From Diplocarpon mali (taxonomy: Eukaryota; Ascomycota; Leotiomycetes; Helotiales; Drepanopezizaceae), in assembly GCA_024741835.1 (NCBI GenBank), contig JAENRP010000351.1, positions 1 to 44,664 of the forward strand: a stretch of 44,664 nucleotides of DNA. Direction: 5' to 3'. This document shows, one piece after another, positions 2,670 to 44,345 of the stretch; positions within the stretch are counted from its first letter, which is position 1; each line of letters begins with the position of its first letter. The position numbers were made by a program, and so were the translations under genes. Under the pieces are notes generated by a model. It saw nothing but the letters and a program-made list of their open reading frames with translations, ran no database searches and was not told the origin of the DNA.

Positions 2670-2692
2670 ACTGCCAACCCCGGCCCGCGAGT
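2670..2692. repeat. 23-bp palindromic unit in gypsy A1
   Basis: One copy of the dispersed near-palindrome, with right arm GGCCCGCGAGT and a less exact left arm. It is read in the pol frame as T-A-N-P-G-P-R-V, the same phase as in the other elements. It lies in the N-terminal part of the polyprotein. Confidence 0.8.
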
Positions 2693-4586
2693 AAAACCTG
2701 CTAATTCGATTCCCACTCCCGTGGCCTCTTGCAGACCTAAGGATAGTAGTTTCTTTAGAGACTTAAAAAGAGATCTGAACTATATAAAGAAGGCCTTGCT
2801 AAGAGTACTAGACCCCCTGCTCCTTCTCCTAGCGAAGAGGAACGCTATTCTAAAGCTGGCTTGCCAGATCAGCCTAATCTCAGCCTTAGCAATCGGCGCC
2901 CTCTACTACCGCTTTACGACTAAGGTAAGATAAGCTATATAAACTTAAGAACCGGCGCTTAAAGAGTTCACATTTATAAGCTCTATTTACAATTTAAACT
3001 AAGAAATCAATCGCTAAGAATCGGTTAAGCAAGCTGAAATTAGCTCCCTTAGCCTTAGTTCAGTACTACAAGCTAAGTATAAAAGCAATAATAAGCTAAT
3101 AGATTAGAAGCTCTTGCCTTAGTACGCTAAGTTTAAGAACGTCTTTAGTTGCTAGGCCTTTGACCAACTGCTAGAACCTAGGCTAAGGGTAGATTATAAA
3201 ATCGAGCTGATAAGCGAGAACAACTTAATAATCGAACCCTTCTACCGCCTTACTAATGAATAGCTCTTAAAGGTCAAGAGCTATATTCTCGAGAACCTAT
3301 ATAAAGGATTTATCGAAGCTTCGAGTTCCCCTTAGGTAGCCCTAATCCTCTTTATTAGAAAAGCTAATAGCTCCTTACATCTATGCGTTAACTACTGGAA
3401 ATTGAACGCCTTAATAAAGAAAGACCCCTACCCGATTCCCTTTATTAATAAGATAATAGTACATATATCGAAAGCTTGTGTTTTTATAAAAATCGATATA
3501 TAATAAGCCTTCTACTATATTTGCATATTAGCTGATACTAAGGACCTAACTACCTTTCGCACGCGCTATAGGACCTATAAGTATAAGGTTTTGCCATTCG
3601 GGCTGACAAATAGGCCTGCTACCTTTTAAAGGTTTATTAATAATATTCTTCTTAAGCACCTTAACGATTTCTACTCTACCTACTTAGATAATATTCTAAT
3701 CTATTTAGAAAACTCCCTTAACTATGAGATTTATATTAAAAAGATCTTAGGAATTCTCTAACGCCATAGCCTTTAAGCAGATATTAAGAAAAGCGAGTTC
3801 GAGGTTACTAAGACTAGGTTCCTAGGGTTTATTATCGGAGTTTATAGAATTGAGGTAAACCCTGATAAGGTCTTAGTCATTTAAGAGTAGAAATACGCTA
3901 AGAATGTATATAGTATATAAAGCTTCCTAGGGTTTTGTAACTTCTATAGAAGGTTTATTCAAAGCTATAGTTATATCTGCCGACCCTTAATAGCTCTTAT
4001 AGGAAACGTTCCTTTTAATTTTAATAACGCTTATTAAGAAGCTTAAGAAGCTCTGCGCTTAAGGCTTTAAATAACCCCGATTTTATACTACTATTACCCT
4101 TAGAAGCAGACAAGGCTTAAGACTAACGCCTCCGATAGCGTAGTCGCCGGCGTACTCTTCTAACTCTAGGAAGACGAGAACTACCACCTAATCGGGTACT
4201 TCTCGAAGATAATGAATAACGCCGAGCTAAATTACCCTATTTATAATAAGGAGCTCCTAGCGATTTTTAAATCGTTCTACTAATATAAGGCAAAGCTACT
4301 TAAGGCCTAGAAAATAGTATATATATATATAAATCATAAGGCCCTTAAGTACTTTATAATAACTAAGGACTTAATAGCCCGGTAGGCTCGCTAGGCGGAA
4401 TTCTTCGCTGATTTCAACTTCCTTATTATATACTAAATAGGCATAACGAATACGCTAGCTGATATACTCTTATATTAAGACTAAGAGCTGACCCTTCTCA
4501 AGGCTAGGAAACGAGCTTTACGCTACTAGCAGCTCTTACCTAACGATAAGCTCTCTATAGAAGTACTCGCCATTAGAGGCGATTCT

Positions 4587-4654
4587 ACTCCTAGGCCCGG
4601 CCTATAAGTGACTTTAGCGCAGGTCGATTCCACTCCTAGGCCCGGCCTACGAGT
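4587..4654. repeat. two 23-bp palindromic units in gypsy A1 pol
   Basis: Units at 4587-4609 and 4632-4654 start 45 bases apart, a multiple of three. Both have the left arm ACTCCTAGGCC. They are read in the pol frame as T-P-R-P-G-L-Q-V and T-P-R-P-G-L-R-V. They sit in the linker between RNase H and integrase, where tolerance of extra residues is likely. Confidence 0.93.
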
Positions 4655-4745
4655 AACAACTATGCTAATCGCGCTAATAGAGGCACTTGCCAACCTAACG
4701 TCTAGGGTCGAGTACGACGTGGCGAGCTATTATATTATCGATAAG

Positions 4746-4940
4746 TATTGAGCTTAAATGAGTCGGCGCAGTAGGTAATAGAAACTTCTAAAGGTCGATA
4801 GTCGATATATTAGTAAGAGTTAAGGAAGGAAGGTTACCCCTTTCTTCCCTATAGCTATATATATGTTAATATCCTACTAATTAAGCAGTAGGGTCATATG
4901 ATAATATATTAGAGTAATAGCTGTATTACTTATCTTAATA
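4746..4940 (-). repeat. copia-I #1 3' LTR, 195 bp
   Basis: Begins TATTGAGC and ends TATCTTAATA on the plus strand. It aligns without gaps to 10737-10931. Adjacent outside is the TSD copy ATAAG. Confidence 0.95.
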
Positions 4941-5078
4941 CCTTTACTTAGACCTTACTCCGATTGACCTGTAGTTAGGAAAATAATAATTATCCTTTTG
5001 CGCTAATCCAACTCTTAAGTATCTCTTTAAATTAAAAACAATCAATTAATAGCAACCTCTATTGAAATCACTAATCCT

Positions 5079-5228
5079 ACTTATAAGGTAGGATTAAGAG
5101 TCAAATTTCCTAAAAGATATTCCTTTATAAGATTATATAATTTAACTTGCAGTCTAAGCCTAAGAGTCGATTTAAAAACTTTCCTTTATAAGATTATATA
5201 ACCTAACTCGCAAGGCGGGCTTAGGAGT
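5079..5228. repeat. three 23-bp palindromic units in the copia-I #1 3' region
   Basis: Units lie at 5079-5101, 5145-5167 and 5206-5228, starting 66 and 61 bases apart. They are beyond the likely end of pol (TAG complement at 5243-5245). The same three units occur at 16942-17093 and 28076-28228 with different spacings (62/67 and 65/65), so spacing here is not held to multiples of three. This fits a 3' untranslated location. Confidence 0.9.
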
Positions 5229-5242
5229 CGTCCTTAAGCCTG

Positions 5243-8200: not shown

Positions 8201-10345
8201 CGCAAATCTTTTATATATTAGCTAATACCTTAATAAGCTTTTGGCTTCTAATAGCTTTAGTAGCCTATTATTAATCGATATTTTATTATCGGCGGCTAGA
8301 AAGGACTAGTAATAGTAGTTTAAGGTTTTTCCGTTTTCCAATTGTAAGCCTAGCTTAAGAGTCGTTTTTAATAAAACCGCAAGATCTACTTATAGTTTTA
8401 GCTTAAGAGTCGATTTTCTAGAAATGGTAAGATCTACTCGCAGTCTTAGCTCAAGAGTCGTCTCTAACGAATTCGCGAATTTCACTTGCAGTCTTAGCTT
8501 AAGAGTCATTTCTGCGAATTTCACTTGCGATCCTAGCTTAAGAGTTATTATTAGCGAATTTGCAGAATCTACTTGCAGTCTTAGCTTAAGAGTTATTTTT
8601 ACTAAATTCACTTATGATCTTAGCTTAAGAGTCATCTTTAAAGATACTTTATAATCTACCTATAGTCTTAGCTTAAGAGTTATTTTCGCAAATTTTACTT
8701 GCAATCCTAGCTTAAGAGTCTATCTATTCTCCTTATCCTCGCTTAATTGTATTAGGGCAGAGAGTGCACTTTCCTTAAAGGAATTCACTTATAAGTCTGG
8801 CCTAAGAGTCAATTTCTATAATATTACCTTTAAGATAATATAAAGTCCATCTTTGATTTTAGCTTTAAAGATCACTTTATAGTTATTATTTATAAATTAT
8901 ATAAATTAATTATTAAAAACTCTTATATAATTTAACTTTATATAGATCTTATAGCTAGATAAAAGATTAATACTTAAGCTAGGTATAAAGAGAATATTTT
9001 ATAAAAGGAAAGAAATGCTAGCGATATTTATCTCTACTATACCTATTGAGTCTATATATAACCTTTTACTACTAACCTTAATAAAGCGCCTTTTTATTTT
9101 AATAAGTAGGCCTTTAAATAGGTAGGATTTATTAATTATATATGCTATGCAATTAGTATTATTATACTAGTCGGATTTAAGGATCTTATAAAGATCGGCT
9201 TTTAAGACGTAGGCATCTTTATTATAATTATTATCTAAATTATCAAAAGTGGATTTAGGTTTAAATAACCTACTATTATTATTAAAGGTATTTGCTAAAG
9301 TTCTAGCTAAATAGCCTTTTCCTTTGCCTTTCTTTAATAGTTATAGCCTTTAATAGGATAAGGGCAGTTTGCTTTTTAACTTCTGCTTTAATTGCTTCTT
9401 AATATTAAAGCTAGCAATTATATCGATTAATTGCCTTCTAACTTTACAATTAGTAATATTATAAGTACTATTATAGAAGTAGCATCCCTAATAAGCTTAA
9501 GGGCTTATCCTACGCTCCTTCCTCTTCTTAAGCTTATCATTACCCTATAACGCGGCATTTGCTAACTTAAAGCGTCCTTCGAGGTCTTACTTAATAGTTC
9601 GAAGGAGGTCGATCTTCTTATAGATCTTAAGGTTAAGTTAAATAAAAAGAGATTATTTTATAATAGTAAACTTAAGAGGGAGGCTATTAAGTAGGAAATC
9701 AAAAAGCTGAGTTTCTCCAAAAGTTATAACTATCTTAGGATCTACGGCTCTTACTCTCCTTCTTACTTTATATAATATAGATTAAGCAGAGTCTATATTT
9801 ATATTTATATCCTTACTATCTTTATCTTTTTTATACTAAAATAAAGTGATCTGCTATAGTAGATACTAAGTATTAAAGGCAGTTATTTAAGAGTATTTTA
9901 CCTTTAATATATCCTATCTTATTTTCGCATTATTATAAACTTAAATAAAATCTCGGTCTTTATTATTTAAACCTCTATTAATTTTAAGCTTATATTTAGC
10001 TAAGGCCAGCCTATACTCCTTTTCCTTTTCTATATTTAAAATCTGCCTTTGGGATTCTTAGTTATTATCTATTAAAGCTCTTAGGCTAAGCTTATTTAAT
10101 ATATTTAGCAAATCCTTAGCAGTTGTATTAGCTATTAAAGTAGAAGTAGACGAATTAGTAGAAGGAGTATAGGAGGCTATTCTCGCGTATTTAATAAGTG
10201 TCTTTTAAATCGCTATTTTAATACCTTTGCTCTTAAAGTAAAGCTTTAAATTATCGAACTATTATTACCAGTTCTTTTAAAAGAGTTAAAGGTCTTTAGG
10301 CTTAGTGTTTCGATCGGAATCGGATGCTATTGCCGTTTTAAATAG
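5243..10345 (-). pseudogene. copia-I #1 gag-pol polyprotein
   Basis: This is a decayed Ty1/copia polyprotein read on the minus strand. Gag begins near 10345 and a CCHC-type knuckle remnant is at about 9446-9484. A linker with ten 23-bp repeats (8340-8809) precedes a pre-integrase/integrase region (about 8300-7250). RT has the YIND box at 6233-6244 (equivalent to YVDD). RNase H has the TASTKAEYIS motif near 5570-5620. RT, RNase H and the repeat array share one frame, so it was probably a single ORF. Stops are TAA/TAG at Gln/Trp positions. The end is placed at a TAG shared by three copies, though RIP could have made that stop. The plus-strand open stretches at 6939-7205 and 8424-8654 are shadows of this gene. 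Confidence 0.88.
8340..8809. repeat. ten-unit in-frame array of the 23-bp palindrome
   Basis: Units start at 8340, 8388, 8436, 8484, 8523, 8571, 8610, 8658, 8697 and 8787. Start-to-start distances are 48, 48, 48, 39, 48, 39, 48, 39 and 90, all multiples of three. Read on the minus strand in the pol frame, each gives an octapeptide such as T-L-K-L-R-L-Q-V, joined by 8- or 5-residue linkers rich in F, A, N and S. The array lies between the gag/protease part and integrase of copia-I. Arms are worn by RIP, but ACT at the start and GAGT at the end of each unit persist. Confidence 0.93.
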
Positions 10346-10736: not shown

Positions 10737-10931
10737 TATTAAGCTTAAATAAGTCGGCGCAATAGGTAATAGAAACTTCTAAAGGTCGATAGTCGATATA
10801 TTAATAAGAGTTAAAGAAGGAAGGTTACCCCTTTCTTCCCTATAGCTATATACGTATCAACATCCTACTAATTAAGCAGTAAGGTCATATAACAATACAT
10901 CGGAGTAATAGCTGTATCACCCATCTCAACA
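10737..10931 (-). repeat. copia-I #1 5' LTR, 195 bp
   Basis: Ends CATCTCAACA on the plus strand, the least mutated terminus of the family in this window. It supports a 5'-TGTTGAGATG start for the LTR. The TSD ACAAG follows at 10932-10936. Confidence 0.95.
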
Positions 10932-10936
10932 ACAAG

Positions 10937-16941: not shown

Positions 16942-17093
16942 ACTCCTAGGCCTGCCTTACGAGTTAGGTCATATAGTCTTATAAAGGAAAAGTCTTTAAA
17001 TCGACTCCTAGGCCTAGACTGCAAGTTAAGTTATATAGTTTTATAAAGGAACGCTTTTGGGAAATTTGACTCCTAGTCCTACCTTATAAGTAG
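16942..17093. repeat. three 23-bp palindromic units in the copia-I #2 3' region
   Basis: Units at 16942-16964, 17004-17026 and 17071-17093 all keep the left arm start ACTCCTAG. They are orthologous to those at 5079-5228 and 28076-28228. None is in phase with RNase H in this copy. Confidence 0.9.
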
Positions 17094-17928: not shown

Positions 17929-18717
17929 CAAACTATATAAGGCCTTAAGAAGCTTAAGATAGTGGTCTTAAGGTAAAAGAATAACCTTATTATAAGTATA
18001 TCTAAGAGGTAACTTGACGTAGATATTAGAATCAGCTTTTGAATTAAGGAAAGCTATCTTAATATCGAATTGATTTAGCTTAAAGTCGTATAGCACTATA
18101 AGTGCAATTGCGATCTTTTAAACTGTAGATTTGCATACTTTAGCAAATGTTTAATTATAATCTTGACCTTATTATTACATATAGTCTTATATAATAAATC
18201 TGACCTTTTATTAGGAGATTTCCCTGTTTTAGTCTCTTTTTATTTTAAAGACAAGCCTTAATCCGAGTACTCTATCGTCTTTAAAGAGTTTTAAGCGTTT
18301 TACTACTACCTATATATTCTTATAAGCAAGAGAATTGTACTTAGAGTTAATCGCAGATTGCCATTTATTAGCGTCGGCGTAAAAGAGGGCTTATTCGACT
18401 GTTTTCAAGTCATTTAAGTATAGAGAGTTAAGTAAGGCTATATAAAAGGCGCTTAAATAGGCTTCCTTATTATTAGAGTTATTAGCTTTAAGTCTAAGAG
18501 TAGTAAAGCGAGTAGCTCTCTTTTCAAAAGGCTAAGGGTAAGCCTTGTTCTTAGAGCTAGGAGGTCTTCCTTTCTTTCTTGGAGTTGGAAGCTCAGCTTC
18601 TCCTGAATTAGAATTGACTCGCGGTCCCGGCCTAGGAGTAAAGTCGTAAGAGTCAGAATTGACTCGCGGTCCCGGCCCGGGAGTGAAAATATCGTTTTAA
18701 GAAGTGACTCGCAGGCC
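17929..18717 (-). pseudogene. copia-II #1 integrase/RT linker and RT N-terminal half
   Basis: This minus-strand copia-II fragment is homologous to about 24144-24955 of copia-II #2. It is cut on the left by copia-I #2 (inside the LYSLKQ motif of RT) and on the right by gypsy B2. It covers the RT part that includes KARLVAKG-like, DYDQTFA-like and FNIKIAFLN-like motifs, and the linker with 23-bp units. It is the outermost layer of the visible nest; the rest lies outside the window or beyond other insertions. Some unmutated Trp and Gln codons remain, so it is less RIP-worn than many neighbours. Confidence 0.88.
18617..18717. repeat. two and a half 23-bp palindromic units in copia-II #1
   Basis: Units at 18617-18639 and 18662-18684 and a half unit at 18707-18717 start 45 bases apart. 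On the minus strand they are in frame and correspond to the three units of copia-II #2 (24144-24259). The half unit ACTCGCAGGCC is exactly the 11-base left arm; gypsy B2 starts at the next base. Confidence 0.92.
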
Positions 18718-20715: not shown

Positions 20716-20974
20716 TAATAAAAGAGAAGCAATTCCTAACCTCTTATACTATTAGTATAAATGGACTTAAAGTATTATTATTAGCTTTAGTAGATACTAA
20801 AGCTCTTAATTACTTATTTTTAAACTATTCCCTTTCTATATATCTTTCGAAAGCGATTAGCTTTAAAATTCTTCCTCTTCTAGCCCTTATTCCTATTTAT
20901 AGATTTTAGAATACCATTTATATATAAGCTATATATTATATATGCTTTCACTTAATAATTAATAGAAGGTATAT
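20716..20974 (+). pseudogene. gypsy B2 aspartic protease, N-terminal part
   Basis: A retropepsin-like active site reads LVDTKALNYLF (expected DTG or DSG) at about 20787-20820, in the frame that continues as RT after the copia-II insertion. The domain is split at 20974 by copia-II #2 and resumes at 26589. Confidence 0.7.
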
Positions 20975-21214
20975 TGTTGCAGGAATGCCCGTTACATGTT
21001 TGTCATATGATCTGTCACATGACACATTATACATATAATGTGTCATATGACTTGCCATATGACTTAGTGGCAGCCCTTGTTAAATAGCTTATAGTTAGAG
21101 AGCTCTTATAAATCAAGACATAAGACACCCAATATCGTCGTTTGCACCTTATACTTCTTCGTGCCCTCTTCTAGTTTACTATTAAGTTTACTATTAGAGA
21201 ACCTAATTGCTATA
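20975..21214 (+). repeat. copia-II #2 5' LTR, 240 bp
   Basis: TGTTGCAGGA to ATTGCTATA (from GCTACA). It contains a long palindrome at 21014-21051 with 18-base arms, a single mismatch and a 2-base centre, flanked by further GTCATATGA-type repeats. The right LTR has the same region more heavily changed to TA. Confidence 0.95.
21014..21051. promoter_or_regulatory. 38-bp palindrome in the copia-II LTR
   Basis: Left arm GTCACATGACACATTATA pairs with right arm TATAATGTGTCATATGAC apart from one position. Additional GTCATATGA copies flank it (21002 and 21055 region). A dimeric regulator or an RNA hairpin are both possible. It is in the upstream part of the LTR, where U3 control sites would be expected. 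Confidence 0.7.
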
Positions 21215-22664: not shown

Positions 22665-22753
22665 ACTCGCGAGCCGGGCCTAGGAGTCAATTCCTCACTA
22701 AGAGGCGATTCCTCTTTAGGACCGATTTCCACTCGCGGGCCGGGCCTAGGAGT
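22665..22753. repeat. two 23-bp palindromic units before the copia-II protease
   Basis: Units at 22665-22687 and 22731-22753 start 66 bases apart. Both are read T-R-x-P-G-L-G-V in the polyprotein frame. They lie between the zinc knuckle and the protease region and are almost unmutated (GGGCCGGGCC-type cores kept). Confidence 0.93.
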
Positions 22754-24143
22754 CAGTTCTTTTACCTCCTGCTTCTTATTAAAATTGAAGAATCATTAGC
22801 TATACAATATAGGTATTAGTGAGCATATCTCTAATAATCTCTTTAAGTTCACTTCCTATACTACTTAAGATAATCTACCCTCTTTAAGTATAGTTAATAG
22901 ATCTGTTTAACCTTTTAGCGTTAGCATTTGCAAAGTTAACGCACTTAAATCTAATAGAAAGGTATATATTCTTAAATTAATTAATACTCTTTATATACCT
23001 CAATCACCTGTCTACCTATACTTAGGTAGTAAATTTAATAAAATCAAAGGCTTCTATCGAAATGGCAAGCTATTCCTATCTAATGAGAAGGAAATTTGCA
23101 CTATCGATAATAATATATATATTAATAAGGAACAGTCTTCTACTAACTCCTCTGGTTATATAAGTGGATATGCTCTCTTAGCTGCTATTAAAAATAGACC
23201 TCTTGATATTAAGCTCTGGTACTATCGATTAGGCCATATTGGCCTATAAACGGTTAGAAAGACCTAATCTGCTATCACTAATATGCAGATTAAGGAAATA
23301 AAATCAAGGAAGATGCGAATCTGCGCTCCTTATAAGAAAGGCAGACCTCTCTAATATATTAATAAACGTTTAGCTCGCCCTCGACCTATAAAGGCACTTG
23401 ATAAGCTATATATTAATATAGTTCATCTAAAGCCAACTAGCCTTAACGGCCACAAATACGCTTCTATCTTCACTTGCGCAGCTATAATAGCTAGATAGGG
23501 ATGGACCTATATAAATAAATCTAATGCCTTTAAGGCAAATAAGAAGATGATTAGCCTCTTATAAACTTAATATAATCGCATAATTAAGCGGTAGAGAACT
23601 GATAGAAGCAAAGAGTACTCTCTTATACAGATGCGAATACTTATAGAAAACCTTAATATGATTTTAGAAGAATCTACTCTATATACGCTAGAATAAGACA
23701 GCAGATTGGAACAATCAATTCATACACTAATAGAAAAGTTGCAAATAGCTATAATTAATTAAAATATCCCCTCCTTTCTCTAGCCTTACCTCCTTCTTTC
23801 GGTAATATATATTATTAATCTTACTACCTTTGATATTCTTAGTAGTAAGACTTTATATAAGGTCTTTTAGGATAATATCGAGCCTAATAAGCCTTATACT
23901 CCCTTAGTTAAGCATCTTCAAGTACTAAGCTATTACATCTATATGCTAATTGAGAAAGAAAGGCGAACTCAAAGTAATAAACTTGCTTTAAGAGCAGAGG
24001 TAGGTACTCTTATCGGATTTAATAGCAGAAGTATCTATTAAATCTATATACTATTACAAATAGGTAAAAAGATTATTTGATTATCTTACATTCGATTCGA
24101 TAAAGACGGCCTAATTATAGAGCTGCAATTAAGGGGTGATTTG

Positions 24144-24259
24144 ACTCCCGGTCCAGGACCGCGAGTCAATTCTCACTCTTACAATTTCACTCCTAGGCTG
24201 GGACCGCGAGTTAATACTAACTCTTATAGTGATTTCACTCTTAGGCCGGGACCGGGAGT
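24144..24259. repeat. three 23-bp palindromic units between copia-II integrase and RT
   Basis: Units at 24144-24166, 24189-24211 and 24237-24259 (spacings 45 and 48) are in frame, encoding T-P-G-P-G-P-R-V, T-P-R-L-G-P-R-V and T-L-R-P-G-P-G-V. The first pairs at 10 of 11 arm positions. Copia-II #1 has the same three sites but different arm sequences at them. Confidence 0.95.
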
Positions 24260-26056
24260 CAATTCTGATTTAAGAGAAGCTAATAAAGCTGAGCTTTTAA
24301 CTTTAAGAAAGAGAGGAAGACCTCTTAGTTTAAAAAACAAGGCTTACCCTTAGCCTTTTAAAAAGAGAGCTACTCGCTCTACTACTTTTAGATTCAAAGC
24401 TAATAACTTTAATAATAAGGAAGCCTATTTAAGCGCCTTCCATATAACCTTACTCGACTCTCCATATCTAAATAACTTGAAAACAGTCAAATAAGCCCTC
24501 TCTTATGCCGACGCTAATAAATAGTGATCTGCGATCAACTCTAAGTATAATTCCCTTGCTTATAAGAATATATAAGTAGTAGTAAAACGCTTAAAACTCT
24601 TTAAAGACAATAGAGTACTCGGATCGAGGCTTATCTTTAAAACCAAAAGAGATTAAAATAGGGAAATCTCTTAATAGAAGGTCAGATTTGTTATATAAGG
24701 CTATATGCAATAACAAGGTCGAGATTACGACTAGACTTTTGCTAGAGTATGCAAATCTGCGGTTTAGAAGATCGCAATTGCGCTTATAGTACTATACGAC
24801 TTTAAGCTAGATCAGTTTAATATTAAGATAGCTTTCCTTAATTTAGAAGCTGACTCTAATATCTATATCAAGTTACTTCTTAGATATACTTAAGATAAGG
24901 TTATTCTTTTACTTTAAGAATACTATCTTAAGCTTCTTAAGGCCTTATATAGCTTAAAGCAATCTCTACGACTATAGTAAGAAAAGCTACAGTCTAAGCT
25001 GCAAAAGCTCGATTTTCAACCTCTTAATACTAATAATTGCATATATATTAACTACGCCTCTCGGATTCTTATTATCACTTATATTAACGACTTCCTTATA
25101 GTAGCTAAGAAAGGTAATATATATGATAAGTTTAAGAGAGATCTTTGCAACCTCTTTAAAATTATAAGTAGCGAACCGGCTAACTACTTCTTAAGAGTAC
25201 GTATAGTTAAAGATTGATAAAATAGAACGATCTCGCTTTATTAAGACGCCTATATTAATAAGGTTCTTGAATGTTTTTATATAATTAATTACAAGAGCGT
25301 ATCAACTCCTTTTACTAATGGCTGTAAAGTTCATATGGTCAAATTTAAAGGCTAAGCCACTCTATAGGAAGTAAAGCTGTACTAAGAGATCTGTGGTTTT
25401 CTATAGTACCTTGCGCACTATATGCGTTAGGATATACTATACTACTACTCTATTCTTAGCAAATTCCTTACTAACCCTTTGCTATAATATATAGTAGCTT
25501 TAAAATGAGTTTTATAATACTTGCAAGGGATGCGATTCTATTATACTACCTTTGGAAGTAAAACAACTGACCTAAAGCTTTAGAAATTGCACAGCTATTG
25601 CGATTCTGACTAGGCAGGTAATAGAGGAAGTAGAGCCTCCTAGTCTAAGGCCGTCTTCTTCCTTAATAATAGGGTAATTACCGCCTCCTTTAAGCGATAG
25701 ACTATTATCGCTCTTTTATCTATAGAGGCAGAGTATATTGCTATATGCAAATTCGTATAAGAAGCCTCTTAGATATGCTAGGTACTTAAGGAAATAGGCT
25801 ATACTAGCGATAATGCTATTAAAGTCGAGATGATCTGCGATAACTAAAGAGCCCTTCATTTTATTAAAAACCTTAAATATTATTAAAGAACGAAGTATAT
25901 TAATATTAAGTTCTATTATATTTAGCAAGAGCTTTAGAAAGGCCATTTAGACCTTTGGTATACAAATACTAAAGATAATGCCGCCGATAGACTAACTAAG
26001 AGCTTGAATAGCTTTAACCATACCGCCTTTATCAAATTGTTAAATATGAAGGTTCT

Positions 26057-26142
26057 GCACCTCGATTAAAGGGTGATTTTTTTTTGCACCTCTATTATAA
26101 GGTGATTTTTTTTTTTACACTTCTATTAAGGGGTGATTTTTT
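26057..26142. repeat. three tandem GCACCTC-TTTT hairpin repeats in the copia-II 3' region
   Basis: A unit of about 30 bases, roughly GCACCTCTATTATAAGGTGA plus a T run of 5 to 12, occurs three times (starts 26057, 26086, about 26117). The GCACCT and AGGTG parts are complementary, so each unit is a small hairpin followed by T. A 23-bp palindromic unit follows immediately. Confidence 0.8.
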
Positions 26143-26165
26143 ACTCCTAGGCCAGGCCCGCGAGC
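26143..26165. repeat. 23-bp palindromic unit in the copia-II 3' untranslated region
   Basis: Left arm ACTCCTAGGCC, right arm GGCCCGCGAGC. It lies downstream of the pol stop and is therefore non-coding here. Confidence 0.9.
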
Positions 26166-26343
26166 TGATTTTGACTTTTTTAAAGGGTAGATTTCCTACT
26201 CTAGAGTAGAGCGCGCTAGCGAACTCTACTCTATTTCCTATATCTGCAGGTTGATTTTTCATATGAAACTATAGATTCTAACAAAAGTTATAACATCATA
26301 TGTATTACTGGCGAGTACCTTTAAAGGTCTCCTTAAAGGGGTA

Positions 26344-26583
26344 TATTACAAGAATGCCTATCATATATTTGTCATATGATCTATCATATAATATATTATA
26401 TATATGATATGTTATATAACTTGCCATATGACTTAATGGCAGCCCTTGTTAAATAGCTTATAGTTAGAGAGCTCTTATGAATCAAGATAAAAGATACCTA
26501 ATATCGTCGTTTGCACCTTATACTTCTTCGTGCCCTCTTCTAGTTTACTATCAAGTTCACTATCAGAGAACCTAATTGCTACA
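26344..26583 (+). repeat. copia-II #2 3' LTR, 240 bp
   Basis: Starts TATTACAAGAATGCC (from TGTTGCAGG) and ends GCTACA, followed by the TSD TATAT. It is more RIP-worn than the 5' LTR in the palindromic part. Confidence 0.95.
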
Positions 26584-28075: not shown

Positions 28076-28228
28076 ACTCGTAGGGCAGGACTAGGAGTCA
28101 AATTTCCTAAAAGCGTTCCTTTATAAGACTATATAACTTAACTCGCGGTCTAGGCCTAGGAGTCGATCTAAAGAAAAACTTTCCTTTACAAAACTATATA
28201 ACCTAACTCGCAAGGCGGGCCTAGGAGT
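28076..28228. repeat. three 23-bp palindromic units in the copia-I #3 3' region
   Basis: Units at 28076-28098, 28141-28163 and 28206-28228, spaced 65 and 65. They are better preserved than in #1 (GGCCTAGGAGT arms kept). Confidence 0.92.
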
Positions 28229-29740: not shown

Positions 29741-30440
29741 TTAATAACCTATATAAGGACCGATTTCTTAAGATTTCCGTTTTTATATAACCTTATCGAT
29801 CTCTTAGTTCGTAGATAAAAGACCGGCCTTTGAAATATATCTTTGAAAATACTTATAGCATTTTAATTAACTTTAAAACCCTTATCCTTAATCGCTTAAT
29901 TACTTAGAACTATCGATTTTCGTTTAGCAACTATTAATAACCTTAGATTTTCCCTTTTCAGCTCTGCTTTAAAAACCCCTATTTTCTTCCTTAACTCTAA
30001 GATTCTCGGAATTTTCGGCTTCCTAGTATAAAAAGTTTAGCAAACCCTATAATAGCAATCTCAAATAGCAGTAGTTTTAAATACTCAAGTAATACTAAGC
30101 GCAAACTCTAATCGGAAGTGCCTCCTTAGAATCTTTAAAAATCCGAATCTGATAATTCAGCCGCCTTAGCTTAATAGAACTCTAAAAATTGCCTTAGAAT
30201 CGTCTCTAGAGACCCCTTTATTCTAAGGACTAATAGGAATTAGCCTAAAGGCTAAGAAGAATCTTAGATATAAACCTTATCTTAGAAATTGGTCTTTAAT
30301 TAAGTAAACCTTATCTTATTACAATTAGTCGCAATACTCCTATTAGCTGTTTAGTACCTACTTAAAATCTCTTAGTAAACTTAAATTAAACTTTTAATAG
30401 AATTCGGAATTCTACTCCTAAGCCTAGCCTATAAGTAGGA
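29741..30440 (+). other. leader of element C with one 23-bp unit
   Basis: About 700 bp between the LTR and gag, with no convincing gene. A 23-bp unit lies at 30414-30436 (ACTCCTAAGCC left arm); it is not in phase with gag as read downstream. The gag start could lie anywhere from here to about 30690. Confidence 0.55.
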
Positions 30441-33330
30441 GGATAAAAAGACATCTTTAAATAATTTAGGACTACTACCTACTTTTTCAATATTAATATT
30501 AAAAAATATTAAAAATAATAATAATTTTAAACTTTTTACTAACCCTTTATCTAAATCTTTTCAAACTTATCCTAATCACTTTAAGATTAACTTAGATTTT
30601 AAACGTTCTTTAAGCCCTTTTAAATTTCGAAGTACTCCTCTTAGCAATCAATCTTATAATATTAAAGCTTCCCCTTTGCCTTTTATAGATTCTAATAACT
30701 TAGACAGTTAGTATAAAACGATAATAGCTATATTTAAGGCTATTATTAGTCACTTTCCCCTCTCTAATTCCCTTAGCACTCTTTACTTTACAGGCGCTAA
30801 TATTACTGATTTCCTTAAGTAATATAAGGAAACGTATTACGATTTTGGTATTATATAAGAGGATATGATTTTTCGACTTCCTCGCTATTATAATTATATA
30901 AGCAAGGATATTATCAAGTCCCTCCTTAAATAGAAAACTCATAGTTTATAAGAACTTCTTATTAAGGCCCTTAAATCTGAATTCTGCGAATTTAACAAAT
31001 AGTAGATTTGCAATACCCTAGCTTTCTTAAAGGAATTTATTCTAATTACTTATACTCTTAAGGAACTTAAGAACTACTATCGGACTTTTACTTATATATC
31101 AAATACCTTAATTAGCTAGAAAATACTTAGCGAAGTTGAAAGAGGCCGCCTTTTCTTACTTAGATTACCTACTAGCCTTTAAAACAAAATCATTAAGCAT
31201 TTTAAGATCAATAAGCAAGACTTTATAACCTTTGCCTTATTTAAGGAATTCTCAGCCTTTGCTTTAAAATCAGATCTCAGTAAGAGAACTATTAATGCTA
31301 TAGAGTAGGAAAAAGCCCTTACTCCCTCCTATACTAAAGACCTTAAGAATCTGGTCCAAGAATATTCGAAAGCTCTAGAAGTTATAGAAGAGGCAAAGAA
31401 GAACCTAGTAGTCATACCTTTCACTTATAGGCCCAACCTAGGAGTAAGATCCAACCTTAGAATTAAGGAACTTAAGACCTAATTTATAGAACTCCAAATC
31501 TAAAGCTTAGAAACCAGGATTAATAATCTCTTATAGGAAAAATAGCATATTCCCTAATTTAGTAATAGGTAAAACTCAGCTACTATAAGCTAATATAGTA
31601 GTTCCTATTACCAGACTTCTACTTCTTATCATTCGGAATAACCAGCTAATATAAGAACTTAATAGTTAATTAAAGAAGGAGAAATTAATCCTAATTAGCA
31701 CTCTACTAATATTAATGCTATAAGGTACCAAAGGAATAGTAATAAAAGACGACTAACCTATAACTTTTGCAATAACAAAGAACCTAACTGCACTTTATAT
31801 AAGTATCGCAACGATTGCCCTCTTTTCTATCGTTTTATTAATACTAAGGTCATATATATTAATAAGTATAAGATACTTTATATTAGAGATCCTAAGCTAA
31901 AAGCTATCCCTATTAAAAAGTACTAGAATCACTTATAGTTATAAACTATTTAAATGATAATATATAGTATAAAATAGGACGAGAATTTAGTCGAACGATA
32001 GCGTATTATAGATATAAACGCTAAAATTCCAATTTATATATACATAGGTCCAATTAGCAACCTACCTAAGGGAGTTCTTAAGGACCTAGCTTCTAATCAA
32101 ATAGCTATAGAAGTTAAAGGCATCTTTATCTTAAGATAGGTTAATAATAATATATCTGCTAATATTAATGCTACTTCTATATTTAGAAACCCTTGGAATA
32201 CTTAGCGTTCTTCTAGATCTACCACTCCCTTAATACTAATAAAACTAGCCAAAGTCCAGAAATCAATACGTATAACTTAAGAATCTTAATATAGAATCTA
32301 AACGCTAAAAGATATCTAATAATCTGGAACTATAGTAGATAAGGATAAAGCTAATATAGTAGATAAATTAATCAGAGATATAATAGACAAAGATGGCTCT
32401 AAGCTCGAAGATTAAGAAGTCGAAGTTATTACGCAAACCCCTAACTTTAAGTGAAAGAGATAGATATTAAAATAGGAAAAATTCATTAATAAATATACTA
32501 ATTCAACTACAATAGAGAAAGCTATAGAGAATATTATAGCCTAGTAAATTAACCTTACGTTTAAAGACCTATTTAATTTAACTAAACGCTTTAATAAAGT
32601 GCTAAGAAAGCATATCCCAATTACCTTTAAAGATTTGAATAATAATAAGGAAATAGAAATTATAATATAAAAGAACTTTAAGAAACACTTAGCCTTAATC
32701 AAATGTCTTTAGATTATAAAAGACGAAGGAACCCAAAGGTATTATAATATTATAGCAATAGCTTTAATATCTTAAAATATTAATTGAAATTGTTTAGCAA
32801 TTGTAATAAAAAGCCCTATTATTATTTATTTTATAAAAGAATCAGTTAAAGCAAAGGCTCTAATCGATTATAGTTCAAAAGTTAATACAATAATTAGAAA
32901 AGTAGTAGAAATAGCTTAATTGACAATTGTTAGCGATCGACTTCTTATTTATTCGACTATCTCTAGATCAAAATACAATTTTAATAGATAGGTGAAAAAT
33001 ATAAAGGTTAAAGTTAAAGGAATCGTTAATTATACTAACTTTCTAATAATAGAGAATTCTTTAAATAATATTCTTTTAAGAATGCCCTTTATTTTAGAAT
33101 CTTAGCTAATATTTAACTATCCTAGAGATAGTCTTATAAAAGCTAGTCTTTAAAATATAGATTGATCTTTAAAAGGATAAATAGTTATTATAAGAGATAT
33201 AGCCGAATTTTAAAATAAGGTTTTAAAAAACAATTAGCCAGTATAAGGGCTAGGCTTAATACTAATAAAGGAAGGCACCTAGCGAGAAGTTATAGCAAAA
33301 GAAAGGTAAGTTTGCTAATTTTAAATAATA
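30441..33330 (+). pseudogene. element C gag and aspartic protease
   Basis: A long frame with TAA/TAG interruptions. It has an alpha-helical gag-like part (from about 30688), including HFPLSNSLSTLYFTGANI and an RNA-binding-like Cys cluster (NFCNNKEPNCTLYKYRNDC, about 31758-31815). One 23-bp unit at 31423-31445 is in frame (T-Y-R-P-N-L-G-V). A retropepsin-like site ALIDYSSKVNTI (expected DTGS) lies at about 32857-32890. Pol follows in the -1 frame. The layout is that of Ty3/gypsy. Boundaries are approximate. Confidence 0.7.
31423..31445. repeat. 23-bp palindromic unit in element C gag
   Basis: Left arm ACTTATAGGCC, right arm AACCTAGGAGT, in the gag frame with the usual phase. Confidence 0.9.
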
Positions 33331-33338
33331 GCAATTTG

Positions 33339-33523
33339 ACTCGCGGTCCTAGACTAAGAGTCAAATCTGGAATTTTGAAAAATAGTGCAATTAGCGTTTT
33401 ATTAGATTAATAATTAAGAAAAAAGAAAAATAAAGCAAAGAAGAGGGTTTATTTTACAAATTTCGATAGTTTACTAATTATTTTAAAAAACTCAAAAACC
33501 ACTTATAGGCCAGACCCGCAAGT
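33339..33523. repeat. two 23-bp palindromic units before element C RT
   Basis: Units at 33339-33361 and 33501-33523 start 162 bases apart and both are in the RT frame. They lie in the protease-RT linker. Confidence 0.9.
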
Positions 33524-35467: not shown

Positions 35468-35490
35468 ACTCTTAATCCTAGCCTACGAGT
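35468..35490. repeat. 23-bp palindromic unit, off phase, in element C
   Basis: ACTCTTAATCC left arm and GCCTACGAGT right end. Between RNase H and integrase. Read in the pol frame it gives L-L-I-L-A-Y-E-L, the only clear coding-region copy not in the standard phase, unless a local indel shifted the frame. Confidence 0.85.
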
Positions 35491-36902: not shown

Positions 36903-36925
36903 ACCTATAAGCCAGTCCTATAAGT
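36903..36925. repeat. 23-bp palindromic unit at the element C pol C-terminus
   Basis: ACCTATAAGCC left arm and GTCCTATAAGT right arm; RIP-worn but in standard phase (T-Y-K-P-V-L-x-V). Confidence 0.8.
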
Positions 36926-37020
36926 AAAGAATATTAAAATACCTAATCAATTGCAACCTTAAGTCATTATTCCTAAAATATCCAAAGAATGCAAATAGGA
37001 ATACTAAACGATTTCCTAGC

Positions 37021-37319: not shown

Positions 37320-38165
37320 ATGCTTTTAAAGAACTTATAAATGGTTTTATCTATTGCAATAGGAGATAAATAAGTACTAATTATAAACTTCTCTTAGGAT
37401 AGTAAAGCTATTATATTATTAGAGAGCTTCAAATCGACTTACGCAGCCTTAGGAGATATAGAGTAATAAAAACTCCTTTTAGCTTATGCGAATGCTATTA
37501 ATAACCTTTTAACTTAAGTGGCCCTTGGAATTCTCTAATTTAACAACTTCTTAACCGAAGAATTGAGATTGAAGGGAATCTTTAAAGAGGAATTCTTAGC
37601 TGACGCAAATCAATATATAACCTTGGCCGACACTTTTAAAACGGACTAAGATAAAAGGGAAGAATCTATTCGACGACTAGATAATTTAGCCACTAATAAA
37701 AGAGGACTCCTATTTCATTCGCGCTTCTTAACAAATATTAATTCTAATAATAGAAGGCGAATGTTATTAAAAATTCTTAAGGAAAATACTCTTATAGCTA
37801 GAGCTATTCAGATTCTCAATTTCTTTATCATTTAAGAAGGAGTAGTAAAATTCCAAGGCAATCGAATTCGCAATCGCAGATTTATAAGCTTATTTAATGC
37901 AGTACTTATAGTAGCTAATAAGGCTATAAAAAGATCAAATTAGGCTATAGATATTACCCTACCTAATAGTACTATTATTAATATACTAAGGCTCTACGCT
38001 TTTGCTTATAGTTTGCTTATTTTAAAAGAGAACTGGACTCCTATACTAGGATTTAGATAAGATTTCTTTAATAATAAAGAAGGGAATTAATTATTTATAA
38101 TTAAGCCTGCCTTAAAATTCGCCTCTTAGCTTAAAGATATAATAAGTGTTAAATTATATAATTTA

Positions 38166-38188
38166 ACTCGCGGTCCTAGACTAAGAGT
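38166..38188. repeat. 23-bp palindromic unit 1 in X1
   Basis: ACTCGCGGTCC left arm; read T-R-G-P-R-L-R-V in the X1 frame. It is at the position matching 42085-42107 in X2. Confidence 0.93.
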
Positions 38189-39551
38189 CAAAAATGAGAA
38201 TTTTAAAACTAGACCTAACTTGCCTTTTATTAAAATGATTTTAGAAACTGCTATTAAATAAACTGCCTAAACGCTTAGCATAGCCTCTTTAGAATTTTCA
38301 AAATCTTTAAAGGACTCTCCTTTAGCTAAACGACCTATTTTAGCTTAACCTTTAAAAAGGATAGATCGTTTAATAGTTACCTTAGCTAATTTACAATTTA
38401 AAACCAAAGGATTATACGCTTACTTAGACTCTTTCTTTAATAACTTAAAGGAGCTAGTTCTTGACTTCTTTATATCTATATACAACTGTTTTAGAAATAA
38501 TAATATAAGGGAAGACCTTATTCCTACTACTTTAAAGATAATTAAAAGAGATATTAGATAGATTCAATAGCTTATCTTAAATGAGTTTGCCTTTATAGAT
38601 ATTATTCAATTCTTTAATAATTATAAAAGTCAAGAACTTAATCTCTTAAATGCTAAGCGAGACTATTTTATCTTATAAGAAAGAGAACGCAAAGAGGAAT
38701 CTATTAATTAGGACATTTGTAATTATAGCAATATGCTTCAATCGGTCATTCTTAACCTTAAGCTTAGAGAATAATATAATATTCAAGTGTCCTTTGCAAT
38801 AAAGACTCGCTTTCGATAGTATCTTCTTAGCGTAGGAATCGAAGGGAGAAGACTTTGTGACCTTTATATTTGCTCTCTTTTAGTTTACTATAGTCTCAAT
38901 TATAAAGGATTTAATATTAATAAAACTATTAAATACCTTAAACTTCTTTACGTAGTAGAAGATATTAATCTTTTTCTAATTTACTTTAATAATCAATTCT
39001 TTATCTCTTTAAAGATACGTAAATCCAACCTATTAATAATAGAGGCATCTTTAGGTGCTGTAAAATTCAAGGCTGATCCTAAAGCCTTAAAAGCGTTAGA
39101 GCCGATTAAATAGAACAATTCCTTCTTATCGATATTATTAAGTAATAAATAGTAGGAGGAAATAAAGGAAGAAAGGTCAATTATAATGCCTAAACCCTTC
39201 GGATGCTGCTTCTTAATCGAAAATTTTACTACTAATAATAGTGCTTTTATAAGTATATTCCTCTCTATTATAAGATAAGAAGTAGAGATATATCTTTATT
39301 ACTTCTGCCCTATAGATAGCGCGACCTTTATACTTTCTTATTTTCTTTATAATATGATATTCAGTCTTACTTAATAAGTCCTTTAAATGTACTATAGACT
39401 CTACCTCTTAGCTATAATAGTAAGAAGTAAAGGAACCTATTAGCTTATAGCCTACTTTAAACCTCCTTAATTGATTGGCCTTAGTCTTTATAATTAAGTT
39501 GTTTTAATAAAGAGAGATATAAGTGCTACTAATAAAGAAATTCCGATTTTC

Positions 39552-39574
39552 ACTCGCAGTCCTGGCCCGTAAGT
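39552..39574. repeat. 23-bp palindromic unit 2 in X1
   Basis: ACTCGCAGTCC left arm; read T-R-S-P-G-P-x-V. Matches the position of 43501-43523 in X2. Confidence 0.92.
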
Positions 39575-40436: not shown

Positions 40437-40459
40437 ACTCGCAAGCCTAGCCCGCAAGT
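40437..40459. repeat. 23-bp palindromic unit 3 in X1
   Basis: ACTCGCAAGCC left arm; read T-R-K-P-S-P-Q-V, in the C-terminal region, like 44323-44345 in X2. Confidence 0.9.
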
Positions 40460-42084: not shown

Positions 42085-42107
42085 ACTTATAGGCCTAGCC
42101 TATAAGT
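42085..42107. repeat. 23-bp palindromic unit 1 in X2
   Basis: ACTTATAGGCC left arm and AGCCTATAAGT right arm, pairing at 10 of 11 positions with a TATA block in both arms. In frame as T-Y-R-P-S-L-x-V. Confidence 0.93.
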
Positions 42108-42270
42108 GGAATTAGTATATAAGGAGAATGTCCTTAAGCCGGAGATGCTTATAATACTAAGAACTTAAGTAGCTAACCTGCCTAACTACTAATCCTTTAA
42201 CTTAAACGAATTTGAGTCACTATCCTTAGAAATGCCTTAAACACTTTAAACACTAGTAGCAAAGAAAATG

Positions 42271-42293
42271 ACTCGCGGGCCTAGCCTATAGGT
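42271..42293. repeat. 23-bp palindromic unit 2 in X2
   Basis: ACTCGCGGGCC left arm; in frame. No counterpart seen in X1 at this position, so it is a candidate for a later gain in X2 or a loss in X1. Confidence 0.92.
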
Positions 42294-43500
42294 TAATATA
42301 CATAATATTATAGACTTAGAAGATGAATTGTCTAATAAAGAAATAGGCACTATTACTAATATACTAGAAATTTTTAATAATATTAAGAAGGATACTACTA
42401 ATATTATACAATCTTTCCTTAATAACTTATAAAAATTTATTCTCAAATTCTATAAATTAATAATAAAGCGTTTAAGAAAAGAAGGTTAAGGAGAAGTCTT
42501 ATTAGTATAGGAAGGGACGATAAAAGCCATTAAGCAGATTATAAAACTACTATAAGACGAATTTTCTATAGATAATATTATATAGTTCTTTATTAAGTAT
42601 AAGAAATTAAAAGGTAACTTCTATATTCTTAAGAAGAAATCCAAAGTTAATACAAATATTATCTCTATAGAATATTATCAGGTCCCCTTTAATATAAAGA
42701 TAATACTATAGTATAGCAATAGTTTTAAGATAGTAGTAATACTAGAAATGAAGATAAGACTTGCAAAGTTTATAATAGGAATATTTAAGGACTTCAATTT
42801 TGAAAAGTTCTACGCCTTTTATAAACGCTAATATGCGCAGTACTATAGATTAATAATAATAGGCCTTACTAATAAAGATATATTGTCTAGTATTTATAAA
42901 TTTTATACCGCTTCCGACCTGACCTTATTTTTATTGTATCTAGGAAATCATGCAATTATGGCTACTGGTAATAGAATAGCAAGCCAAGTTAAGAAGGATA
43001 TATTATTAGGCTTCTCTAAGTTTAAAGTAGCACCTAAAGCCCTTAAATTGTTTTATAATATCGTATGGACCCCTGCCTAGTATAACGCTATACTAACTAT
43101 TAACAACTTTATATCATTCTATAGCAAAGGCTTTTTAAATATGCCTAAGTTGTTTAGCTACGCCTTTTTAAGCGCTGTGCATATGTATAATTATAGTAAT
43201 TGTAAAAAGAATTCATTTTTGATATTAGTATAAGAAGAACTAGAAATGTACTAATACTACTTCCGGACCTTAAATAAGAAGCCAAACCCCCTCTCTGCCT
43301 ACCTTTATAATATAACTTATAGCTTAATATAATAGATACTAAGGATATATTATAGATTATACTTAGGTGCTCTACTAACTTAATATAAGTCTTTATATAA
43401 ACTAGTAACGTATCTTAAGCTTATATAATTTATTAGAATTGACTACTACTTAAGAGTTATTGCTATTAAGATTAATGCTAATATAAGATTTGTAAGATTG

Positions 43501-43523
43501 ACTCTTAGGCCTAGCTTGCGGGT
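43501..43523. repeat. 23-bp palindromic unit 3 in X2
   Basis: ACTCTTAGGCC left arm, right end TTGCGGGT; in frame as T-L-R-P-S-L-R-V, followed by Asn as in many copies. Confidence 0.92.
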
Positions 43524-44322
43524 TAATCCACTTAATAATAGAACTATTGACTACTATATGATTCTAGCAGCCAAACAATCGATCGGAGAATTCGCTATTT
43601 AGGAAAAATCCTATAAATTATCAAATCTTATACCCTAACGCCTTAAGAATGCTTAATAGATCTTATTAAATCTGGCTTAAAATATAGTATAATAGAAAGA
43701 ATTGAATACTAAAGAGAAGACACTTTTAAAGGAGTATATCTCTAATAAAATGACTCTATTCTCTATATTTACTAAATAAGGCATATTTGTTGATATAGAA
43801 TCTGCTAAAAAACTAAGAAAAGGTGGCTTTCTTACTATTAGTAATAATTATATAGAAGTTATTAGCAATAACTTACTAAAGAATAGTATAAACTTAGAAG
43901 ATTTTCTTATCGATTCTATTAGTATAAAGAGACCTAGCATTATAAGATAGAGTATTATTAAAGAATCGTTAGCCAAATTTTATATAACGCTTAGCATAAT
44001 AAAAGGAGGCCTACTATCAGAGGCACTTATAAGGAAACGGCTATAGAACGATCTATTAGTAGTAATAATAGTAAAGGAGTTGTTCTCTAAAGATATGACT
44101 CAGTTGATAATATATCTAAAGAAGTATAAGTAGGAACTTTTTAATAATTTCACCTATACCTAAAAGCTAATTCAATAGTTGAAGCTATAACTATATAAGG
44201 ATAAGTCCTAGACTAAGACAAAAGGCACTAATAATAATATCAAGGCTGATAATATAATTAATAAGACGATCCTTCTTAAAAAGTATAGCATTAAGAAACC
44301 TTATGCTAAACCCTCTGATATA

Positions 44323-44345
44323 ACTCCTAGGCCTAACCTATAACT
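44323..44345. repeat. 23-bp palindromic unit 4 in X2
   Basis: ACTCCTAGGCC left arm, right arm AACCTATAACT; in frame near the C-terminal low-complexity part. Confidence 0.88.

What the first reader, a model, noticed from the sequence alone, without database searches (positions are those of the whole stretch)
2670..44345. A dispersed 23-bp near-palindrome present in at least five unrelated sequence contexts
Seen directly: about 44 copies of ACTC(N3)GGYC(N)GRCC(N3)GAGT in gypsy A, copia-I, copia-II, element C, X1 and X2, with a degenerate relative in gypsy B2 gag. Outer ACTC/GAGT and inner GGCC/GGCC arms are kept. The 3-base block between them varies (CTA, GCG, TAT, TTA, CCG) and pairs in some copies but forms a 3x3 internal loop in others. 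Families that share no other sequence carry it, so it must spread or be selected independently of its hosts. Inference: a tiny mobile palindrome or a recruited protein-binding/hairpin site. The closest known analogue is the Rickettsia palindromic elements; I know of no described fungal one.
Basis: partly seen in the sequence, partly recalled or inferred. Interest (0 to 1): 0.95.

Follow-up and report, generated by a model that had tools for sequence, protein, structure and literature searches.

The report
Tiny coding palindrome inside fungal retrotransposons
A fungal genome carries thousands of copies of a 23-letter near-palindromic DNA unit, and the copies examined lie in many unrelated surroundings, several of them retrotransposons in which the unit reads in frame through open reading frames, so it is likely a minute mobile passenger that has spread from one retrotransposon family to the next.

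Summary
The window has 42 copies by a score that tolerates transitions, against means of 0.14-0.23 in three random controls and 0 for the reversed pattern. The 49.4-Mb genome has 5,576 places within 3 mismatches, against 14 for the reversed pattern. The 178 copies read fall into 21 clusters with unrelated flanks. Conservation is symmetrical and fades about six bases outside the 23-mer; farther flanks match on average as off-register flanks do.

(1) In copies with open frames the unit is translated (T-P/R-x-P-G-P/L-R/G-V), in both orientations in copia-II. Array spacings are multiples of 3 in six clusters, but not in the copia-I 3' region. (2) The variable 3-base block is mostly RIP-type CG/TA change beside a usually non-pairing C/C position. 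(3) Arms show no consistent covariation, so hairpin selection is unsupported.

Best reading: a eukaryotic analogue of Rickettsia palindromic elements, parasitic on LTR retrotransposons. How it moves is inferred. I found no empty site, and a 7-bp target duplication is only hinted at. One protein match suggests a Diplocarpon-like Helotiales host.

The parts
2670..2692 (.). unit copy, in a 122-aa open frame (TANPGPRV)
4587..4609 (.). unit copy, gypsy A pol side, first of a 45-bp tandem pair
4632..4654 (.). unit copy, gypsy A pol side, exact match to the literal pattern
5145..5167 (.). unit copy, copia-I 3' region (non-coding by spacing)
5206..5228 (.). unit copy, copia-I 3' region, 61 bp from the last
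8340..8362 (.). unit copy, copia-I linker array
8388..8410 (.). unit copy, copia-I array
8436..8458 (.). unit copy, copia-I array
8484..8506 (.). unit copy, copia-I array
8523..8545 (.). unit copy, copia-I array
8571..8593 (.). unit copy, copia-I array
8610..8632 (.). unit copy, copia-I array
8658..8680 (.). unit copy, copia-I array
8697..8719 (.). unit copy, copia-I array
8787..8809 (.). unit copy, copia-I array
16942..16964 (.). unit copy, copia-I 3' region (second element copy, inverted)
17004..17026 (.). unit copy, copia-I 3' region
17069..17091 (.). degenerate unit copy, copia-I 3' region
18617..18639 (.). unit copy, copia-II site before RT (second element copy, inverted)
18662..18684 (.). 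unit copy, copia-II site before RT, 45 bp from the last
22665..22687 (.). unit copy, copia-II gag-protease linker, inverted orientation (TREPGLGV)
22731..22753 (.). unit copy, copia-II gag-protease linker, exact match to the literal pattern (TRGPGLGV)
24144..24166 (.). unit copy, copia-II site before RT (TPGPGPRV)
24189..24211 (.). unit copy, copia-II site before RT (TPRLGPRV)
24237..24259 (.). unit copy, copia-II site before RT (TLRPGPGV)
26143..26165 (.). unit copy, copia-II 3' region before the 3' LTR, T-rich 29-31-bp repeats alongside
28076..28098 (.). unit copy, copia-I 3' region (third element copy)
28141..28163 (.). unit copy, copia-I 3' region, 65-bp spacing
28206..28228 (.). unit copy, copia-I 3' region, 65-bp spacing
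30414..30436 (.). unit copy just before a 90-aa open frame; in homologue L043_184 the longest frame reads it in phase 1
31423..31445 (.). unit copy, homologue of L047 (IPFTRGPDLGVRS)
33339..33361 (.). unit copy, frame ...NLTRGPRLRVKSGILKNSAISVLLD, likely a gypsy gag-protease junction (motif recalled)
33501..33523 (.). unit copy
35468..35490 (.). unit copy
36903..36925 (.). degenerate unit copy
38166..38188 (.). unit copy identical to 33339, in a similar stretch
39552..39574 (.). unit copy
40437..40459 (.). unit copy, element X site d
42085..42107 (.). unit copy, element X site a
42271..42293 (.). unit copy, element X site b, 186 bp from site a
43501..43523 (.). unit copy, element X site c
44323..44345 (.). 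unit copy, element X site e
20968..21212 (+). 5' LTR of copia-II (88% to the 3' LTR)
26340..26581 (+). 3' LTR of copia-II
22911..23246 (+). copia-II frame ending in a weak gag_pre-integrs match (E 0.069, below cut-off)
24981..25214 (+). copia-II reverse transcriptase fragment, RVT_2 E 4e-8
4746..4940 (-). likely copia-I LTR (pairs with 10737-10929, 89.6%; strand inferred)
10737..10929 (-). likely copia-I LTR (strand inferred)

Best explanation
The unit is a discrete 23-bp near-palindrome that sits at many unrelated sites, several of them in copia- and gypsy-type LTR retrotransposons, and it likely spreads between such elements as a minute selfish passenger that enters linkers in frame and also non-coding ends, in the manner of Rickettsia palindromic elements. 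Shown: the copy number; the unrelated flanks; the symmetrical edges; open frames running through it, in both orientations in copia-II; and local growth and shrinkage by whole tandem units. Inferred: that the unit itself moves; that it does so as a DNA or cDNA insertion, probably while retrotransposon RNAs are reverse-transcribed together in shared particles; and that the gene-rich loci sampled lack it because its carriers are retrotransposons or because insertions in genes are purged. Each carrier family would then have multiplied its units by ordinary retrotransposition, and RIP would later have turned CG to TA in dead copies.
For: Genome-wide 5,576 places against 14 in the reversed control. 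21 flank clusters among 178 copies. The conserved stretch is symmetrical: in 20 clusters weighted equally, -1 is always Y and +25 always R, and information falls to near background past about -5 and +29. Far flanks match at 0.29 and 0.28 against 0.28 off register. Two copia families carry it at different places. Copia-I has an array between a protease-like and a gag_pre-integrase-like stretch (L031, 225-aa frame; names from recalled motifs) and more units in its 3' region. Copia-II has it after its zinc-knuckle-like stretch (motif recalled), inverted (L033, 175-aa frame), before RVT_2, and before the 3' LTR. Spacings are multiples of 3 in 92 of 92 neighbouring pairs of six clusters that I count as coding, and in 0 of 6 of the copia-I 3'-region cluster. 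All 40 scored copia-II linker copies differ from the matched query span by multiples of 3 (-6 to +24; my arithmetic). Wobble positions 3 and 21 of the frame keep one base at 93%, so the DNA and not only the peptide is shared. Copies of one element differ by 45- or 87-bp (48+39) blocks.
Against: No empty site was found. 40 of 40 scored copies of the L047 family (of 312 candidates) and of the copia-II linker (of 181) are filled. With joined flanks, 24 of 40 scored loci show both flanks, each about 30 bases apart, and 16 show one flank only; in the second search 40 of 40 keep the 30 bases. So movement of the unit alone was never seen. The 7-bp direct repeat that an insertion might leave is weak: shift 30 gives P 0.0005 in one set of 24 sites, but with other copies of the same sites P 0.06, where shift 29 does better (0.02); shifts 31 and 33 also rise in the first set, and 18 shifts were scanned. 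No agent that would move the unit was identified. Phase-0 reading is favoured by stop avoidance after RIP, so the 20 of 24 phase count is biased. At L043/30414 the longest frame is phase 1, at L036/L051 phase 2, and at window 35468 and 36903 phase 1. The highest single flank match between clusters is 0.56 over 39 bases; it was not tested for significance.
Confidence: 0.5

Rival explanations
1. The unit is a binding site for a dimeric protein of the host or of the retrotransposons, gained repeatedly because it helps (or silences) the elements; each half-site GGCC-YR-N-GAGT-N-RR is read separately.
For: Half-sites are conserved symmetrically with a free centre base, weakly constrained positions at 0 and 24, and a weak outer RRWYY. 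Arms show no consistent covariation, as expected of separately read half-sites. It occurs in open frames, in non-coding places and in arrays.
Against: Repeated de novo gain of about 20 fixed bases is improbable without copying. The frequent C/C asymmetry at 5/19 marks common descent rather than a symmetrical site. No protein was identified or sought.
Confidence: 0.2
2. It is an ordinary peptide spacer: a proline-glycine linker repeat selected in retrotransposon polyproteins, and the palindrome is a by-product of its codons.
For: Translated as T-P/R-x-P-G-P/L-R/G-V in several open frames; array spacings in multiples of 3.
Against: Wobble positions 3, 9, 15 and 21 keep one base at 93, 80, 75 and 93% across unrelated contexts. 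It occurs in reverse orientation with a different peptide (TRGPGPGV). It occurs in the copia-I 3' region with non-triplet spacing.
Confidence: 0.1
3. The unit passed between families only by recombination or template switching of longer stretches of retrotransposon RNA, and what remains is the part that tolerated divergence.
For: The carriers that could be named are LTR retrotransposons, whose RNAs can meet in particles (general knowledge). A few single flank comparisons are high (up to 0.56 of 39 bases).
Against: On average flanks beyond six bases match no better than off-register flanks, and identity falls on both sides at about the same distance. Carriers include gypsy-type (RVT_1) and copia-type (RVT_2) elements.
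Confidence: 0.12
4. The unit is a MITE-like DNA element moved by a transposase acting in trans, duplicating about 7 bp so that 30 bp (10 codons) are added and frame is kept.
For: Direct-repeat excess between -6..0 and +24..+30 at shift 30 in 24 sites (0.48 against 0.37, P 0.0005); inverted matching of the same flanks shows no excess.
Against: Weaker with another choice of copies (P 0.06), where shift 29 scores better; shifts 31 and 33 rise in the first set. 23 bp is shorter than any MITE known to me. No transposase was sought.
Confidence: 0.07

Closest known systems
Rickettsia palindromic elements (RPE)
   Same: Short palindromic DNA inserted in frame in unrelated proteins and translated; many copies with unrelated hosts (passage seen in PMC10969869; remarks in passages of PMC2996958).
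   Different: RPEs are about 150 bp, bacterial, and sit in ordinary genes. This unit is 23-35 bp, in a fungal genome assembly, and every context that I could name is an LTR retrotransposon.
[quoted passage not shown]
   Same: Tandem coding repeats with dyad symmetry, variable copy number, dispersal between unrelated ORFs (abstract and passages of PMC2996958).
   Different: PARCEL is a 25-residue, 75-nt amphipathic motif, often in membrane-targeted proteins. Here the array period is 39-48 nt and the motif is Pro-Gly rich; it is also non-coding in places.
GC clusters and other mobile palindromes of fungal mitochondria
   Same: Palindromic repeats of fungal mitochondria that are thought mobile (search listing of PMC4478555; passages of PMC7218506).
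   Different: Those are mitochondrial. This one lies in a 49.4-Mb assembly, inside retrotransposons.
Conserved Hairpin Site of fungal GalEa copia elements
   Same: Palindromic sequence kept in fungal copia elements (passages of PMC5445492).
   Different: CHS has a 9-bp palindrome just after the 5' LTR where a primer-binding site is missing. This unit is elsewhere, longer, and also in a gypsy-type element.

Membership tests
Rickettsia palindromic elements | palindromic unit in many unrelated contexts | tested here: met
   21 flank clusters of 178 copies
Rickettsia palindromic elements | in-frame translated insertion | tested here: met
   open frames through the unit in L031, L033, window 2565-2930 and 24081-24350; triplet spacing in six clusters. 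That it was inserted is inferred
Rickettsia palindromic elements | length of about 150 bp | tested here: not met
   23 bp, at most about 35 bp conserved
Rickettsia palindromic elements | shared sequence with RPE families | not tested
   no RPE sequence was compared
Rickettsia palindromic elements | empty orthologous sites | tested here: inconclusive
   none found in this genome; no second fungal genome available
PARCEL | 25-residue, 75-nt amphipathic repeat | tested here: not met
   commonest array spacings 39, 45 and 48 nt
MITE | target-site duplication | tested here: inconclusive
   weak 7-bp direct-repeat excess, not robust to choice of copies
MITE | terminal inverted repeats of a known transposon family | not tested
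   no transposase search was made
RNA hairpin signal | compensatory change between arms | tested here: not met
   18 pairs, z -2.6 to +2.4 with mixed sign (pairs 9/15 and -2/26 at +2.4, 5/19 at -2.6). Six units alone fold at -8.8 to -16 kcal/mol, z -0.1 to -2.2

The most novel reading that the evidence does not exclude
This is the smallest protein-coding mobile element yet described and the first in a nuclear genome. It is a 23-bp palindrome that parasitises LTR retrotransposons, inserts with a 7-bp duplication so that exactly ten codons are added in any frame, reads as a harmless Pro-Gly linker on either strand, and rides its hosts to more than 5,000 copies.
Probability: 0.17. Interest if true: 0.92.

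Novelty: new variant of a known kind. Interest (0 to 1): 0.72.

Why it matters
Protein-coding palindromes that invade unrelated genes are an old puzzle, known chiefly from a few bacteria; how they move is, to my knowledge, unsolved. Here the same kind of thing appears in a fungal genome in thousands of places, with carriers that replicate through RNA, so its mode of spread could be tested. It also gives a DNA-level tag shared by copia- and gypsy-type elements that show no other sequence in common around it.

Tried and rejected
Chance and RIP artefact: rejected by four controls. Longer palindrome as one general motif: a 33-bp extended pattern finds only 7 places at <=1 mismatch, so outside the 23-mer only an R/Y pattern is general. 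Hairpin selection: unsupported by the arm test. Shared longer flanks: none on average. Window repeat 33321-33421 / 38149-38247 as an LTR pair: dropped, because the frame at 33339 looks like a gag-protease junction (motif recalled). Protein relatives of the L031 array: none at E<=0.001 among 940 candidates. Other genomes: exact extended patterns found 0 in viral contigs and 0 in prokaryote contigs; no other fungal genome is held. 5.8S rRNA to name the host: no match. Empty sites: none. Literature: the listings showed no fungal nuclear unit of this kind; the library lacks most subscription papers.
Full report
OBSERVATION. The 23-mer exists and is far beyond chance. The literal pattern matches 2 places in the window exactly and 30 with up to 3 mismatches. 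A score that charges less for transitions gives 42 (>=14.5) or 38 (>=15.9). At 14.5, reversed pattern, permuted columns, Markov sequence and simulated RIP give 0, mean 0.14, 0.20 and 0.23. The window is contig C351 of a 49.37-Mb, 676-contig genome. There the literal pattern occurs 376 times against 0 reversed, and the YR form 5,576 times within 3 mismatches against 14. Only the first places of such lists are shown, so most genomic copies were counted but not read.

WHERE IT LIES. Of twenty 10-kb loci fetched, 13 hold no copy at score 15.9. Five of the twenty (L010, L011, L019, L020, L024) contain a place listed and were chosen so. The other 15 contain none listed; of these, L009 (10 copies, 37% GC) and L018 (8 copies, 34% GC) have copies and 13 have none, one of the 13 being AT-rich (L023, 36%). 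Of the 12 loci with at least 46% GC, one has a single copy (L019, in the copia-II 3'-region cluster). The 25 small loci, all chosen at hits, have 27-45% GC. So the unit belongs to the AT-rich, repeat-rich compartment; host genes were only sampled thinly.

INDEPENDENT CONTEXTS. Masking the unit and comparing flanks gives 18 clusters of 140 copies and, with more loci, 21 clusters of 178 (L002 and L003 left out as parts of L010 and L011). Several clusters are different sites in one element. Copia-II (LTRs 20968-21212 and 26340-26581; RVT_2 at 24981-25214) has three: after a zinc-knuckle-like stretch (motif recalled) and before a protease-like one, before the RT, and before the 3' LTR. Copia-I (likely LTRs 4746-4940 and 10737-10929) has an array between protease-like and gag_pre-integrase-like parts and two or three units in its 3' region, beside an RNase H-like frame. 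These names rest on recalled motifs; Pfam gave nothing for the three L031 frames. A gypsy element with RVT_1 in L004 has a pol-side site; L004 aligns over 3 kb with L010. Element X has at least five sites; its kind was not settled. The remaining clusters were not assigned to a named element.

EDGES. A profile in which each of 20 clusters weighs the same shows the core ACTC-N-YR-GGCC-N-GGCC-YR-N-GAGT; weak or no constraint at 0, 12 and 24; pyrimidine at -1 and purine at 25 in all of the weight; and a weaker RRWYY on both sides. Beyond -5 and +29 mean identity between 20 representatives is near background: 0.29 and 0.28 against 0.28 off register. The highest single comparison is 0.56 of 39 bases (L020_1727 and window 33501), not tested for significance. 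This argues for a discrete unit and against a recombination chain.

CODING. The frame ACT CSY RGG CCN GGC CYR SGA GTN gives T-P/R-x-P-G-P/L-R/G-V. The clearest open frames are L031 1500-2174 (225 aa, nine units), L033 460-984 minus (175 aa, two units), window 2565-2930 (122 aa) and window 24081-24350 (90 aa). Copia-II reads the unit as TREPGPGV/TRGPGPGV in one site and TPGPGPRV in another, so both orientations occur in one element family. Spacing between neighbouring copies is a multiple of 3 in 92 of 92 pairs of six clusters that I count as coding (0, 1, 4, 5, 6, 7), and in 0 of 6 of the copia-I 3' cluster. Two more pairs, in clusters 12 and 14, are also multiples of 3 but I do not class them. 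Many pairs are copies of one ancestral array and are not independent. The 40 scored copia-II linker matches differ from the matched query span by -6 to +24 bases, always a multiple of 3 (my arithmetic). By longest open frame, 20 of 24 sites are phase 0. That count is biased, because decay to TA puts stops in other phases, and even the 3' sites score as phase 0. The exceptions are L043/30414 (phase 1), L036/L051 (phase 2), and window 35468 and 36903 (phase 1); the first two perhaps lie upstream of gag.

DNA OR PEPTIDE. If only the peptide were kept, wobble positions would drift. Positions 3 and 21 keep T and A at 93%, 9 keeps G at 80% and 15 keeps C at 75%. The DNA is shared.

HAIRPIN. Of 18 position pairs, z against shuffles runs from -2.6 to +2.4: pairs 9/15 and -2/26 are at +2.4, pairs 3/21 and -6/30 at -2.3, and pair 5/19 at -2.6 (0.15 complementary against 0.31). 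Counts at 5/19 are led by C/C 62, G/G 31, G/A 21 and T/C 20; G/C is 6 of 178. Six units fold at -8.8 to -16 kcal/mol with z -0.1 to -2.2. The unit can fold, but nothing shows that folding is selected.

RIP. Against L031, other copia-I copies show C to T at CpA 0.56, CpG 0.39, CpT 0.12 and CpC 0.07, with other changes of C at or below 0.007. Positions 6, 7, 17 and 18 of the unit vary only by transitions, so RIP explains most of the variation in the 3-base block; positions 5 and 19 also vary by transversion.

GROWTH AND LOSS. Of 31 indels that touch a unit, the cleanest are whole blocks: 45 bp in the gypsy element (for example window 4582-4626 against L004) and 87 bp (48+39) in copia-I; others range from 15 to 126 bp, some of them split by the aligner.

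MOVEMENT. I found no empty site. In the L047 family the 40 scored matches (of 312 candidates) cover 265-271 of 271 bases without length change. With joined flanks, 24 of 40 scored loci show both flanks, each about 30 bases apart, and 16 show one flank only; in the second search 40 of 40 keep the 30 bases. A direct repeat between -6..0 and 24..30 (shift 30) is enriched in 24 sites (0.48 against 0.37, P 0.0005). With other copies of these sites it is P 0.06 and shift 29 does better (0.02); shifts 31 (0.03) and 33 (0.005) rise in the first set; 18 shifts had been scanned. It is a lead only.

HOST. The copia-II ORF L033 has one match at E<=10 among 38 candidates: a 107-aa Diplocarpon coronariae hypothetical protein, 82% identical over 51% of the query and ending before the unit. 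A lanosterol synthase ORF has named fungal matches at 70% and unnamed ones up to 84%. A Helotiales host near Diplocarpon is likely, not proven. The D. coronariae genome paper, of which I saw passages (PMC11527701), reports about 51 Mb with 20.74% copia, 5.67% Ty3 and 0.29% DNA transposons; so absence from DNA transposons would say little.

VERDICT. A real, very abundant, discrete palindrome, translated in frame in several LTR-retrotransposon contexts. The nearest kind is the Rickettsia palindromic element; length and carriers differ, so I file it as a new variant, not a member.

Noticed in passing
window 2097-2151: 14-bp tandem repeat CATACTCGTCGACC, 3.9 copies, 95% matches.
   Followed up: no
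window 26056-26142: 29-31-bp minisatellite with T-runs beside the copia-II 3' unit; in copies such as L052 a similar AAGGGGTG motif recurs on the other side of the unit.
   Followed up: partly
L018 3038-3361 (-) and L020 6300-6533 (-): A shared basic frame that resembles, from recall, small fungal MADS-like ORFs; only a sub-threshold Pfam match for the L018 one.
   Followed up: no
L031 and other copia-I copies: Strong RIP-type decay at both CpA and CpG with almost no transversions, so the copies look recently amplified.
   Followed up: partly
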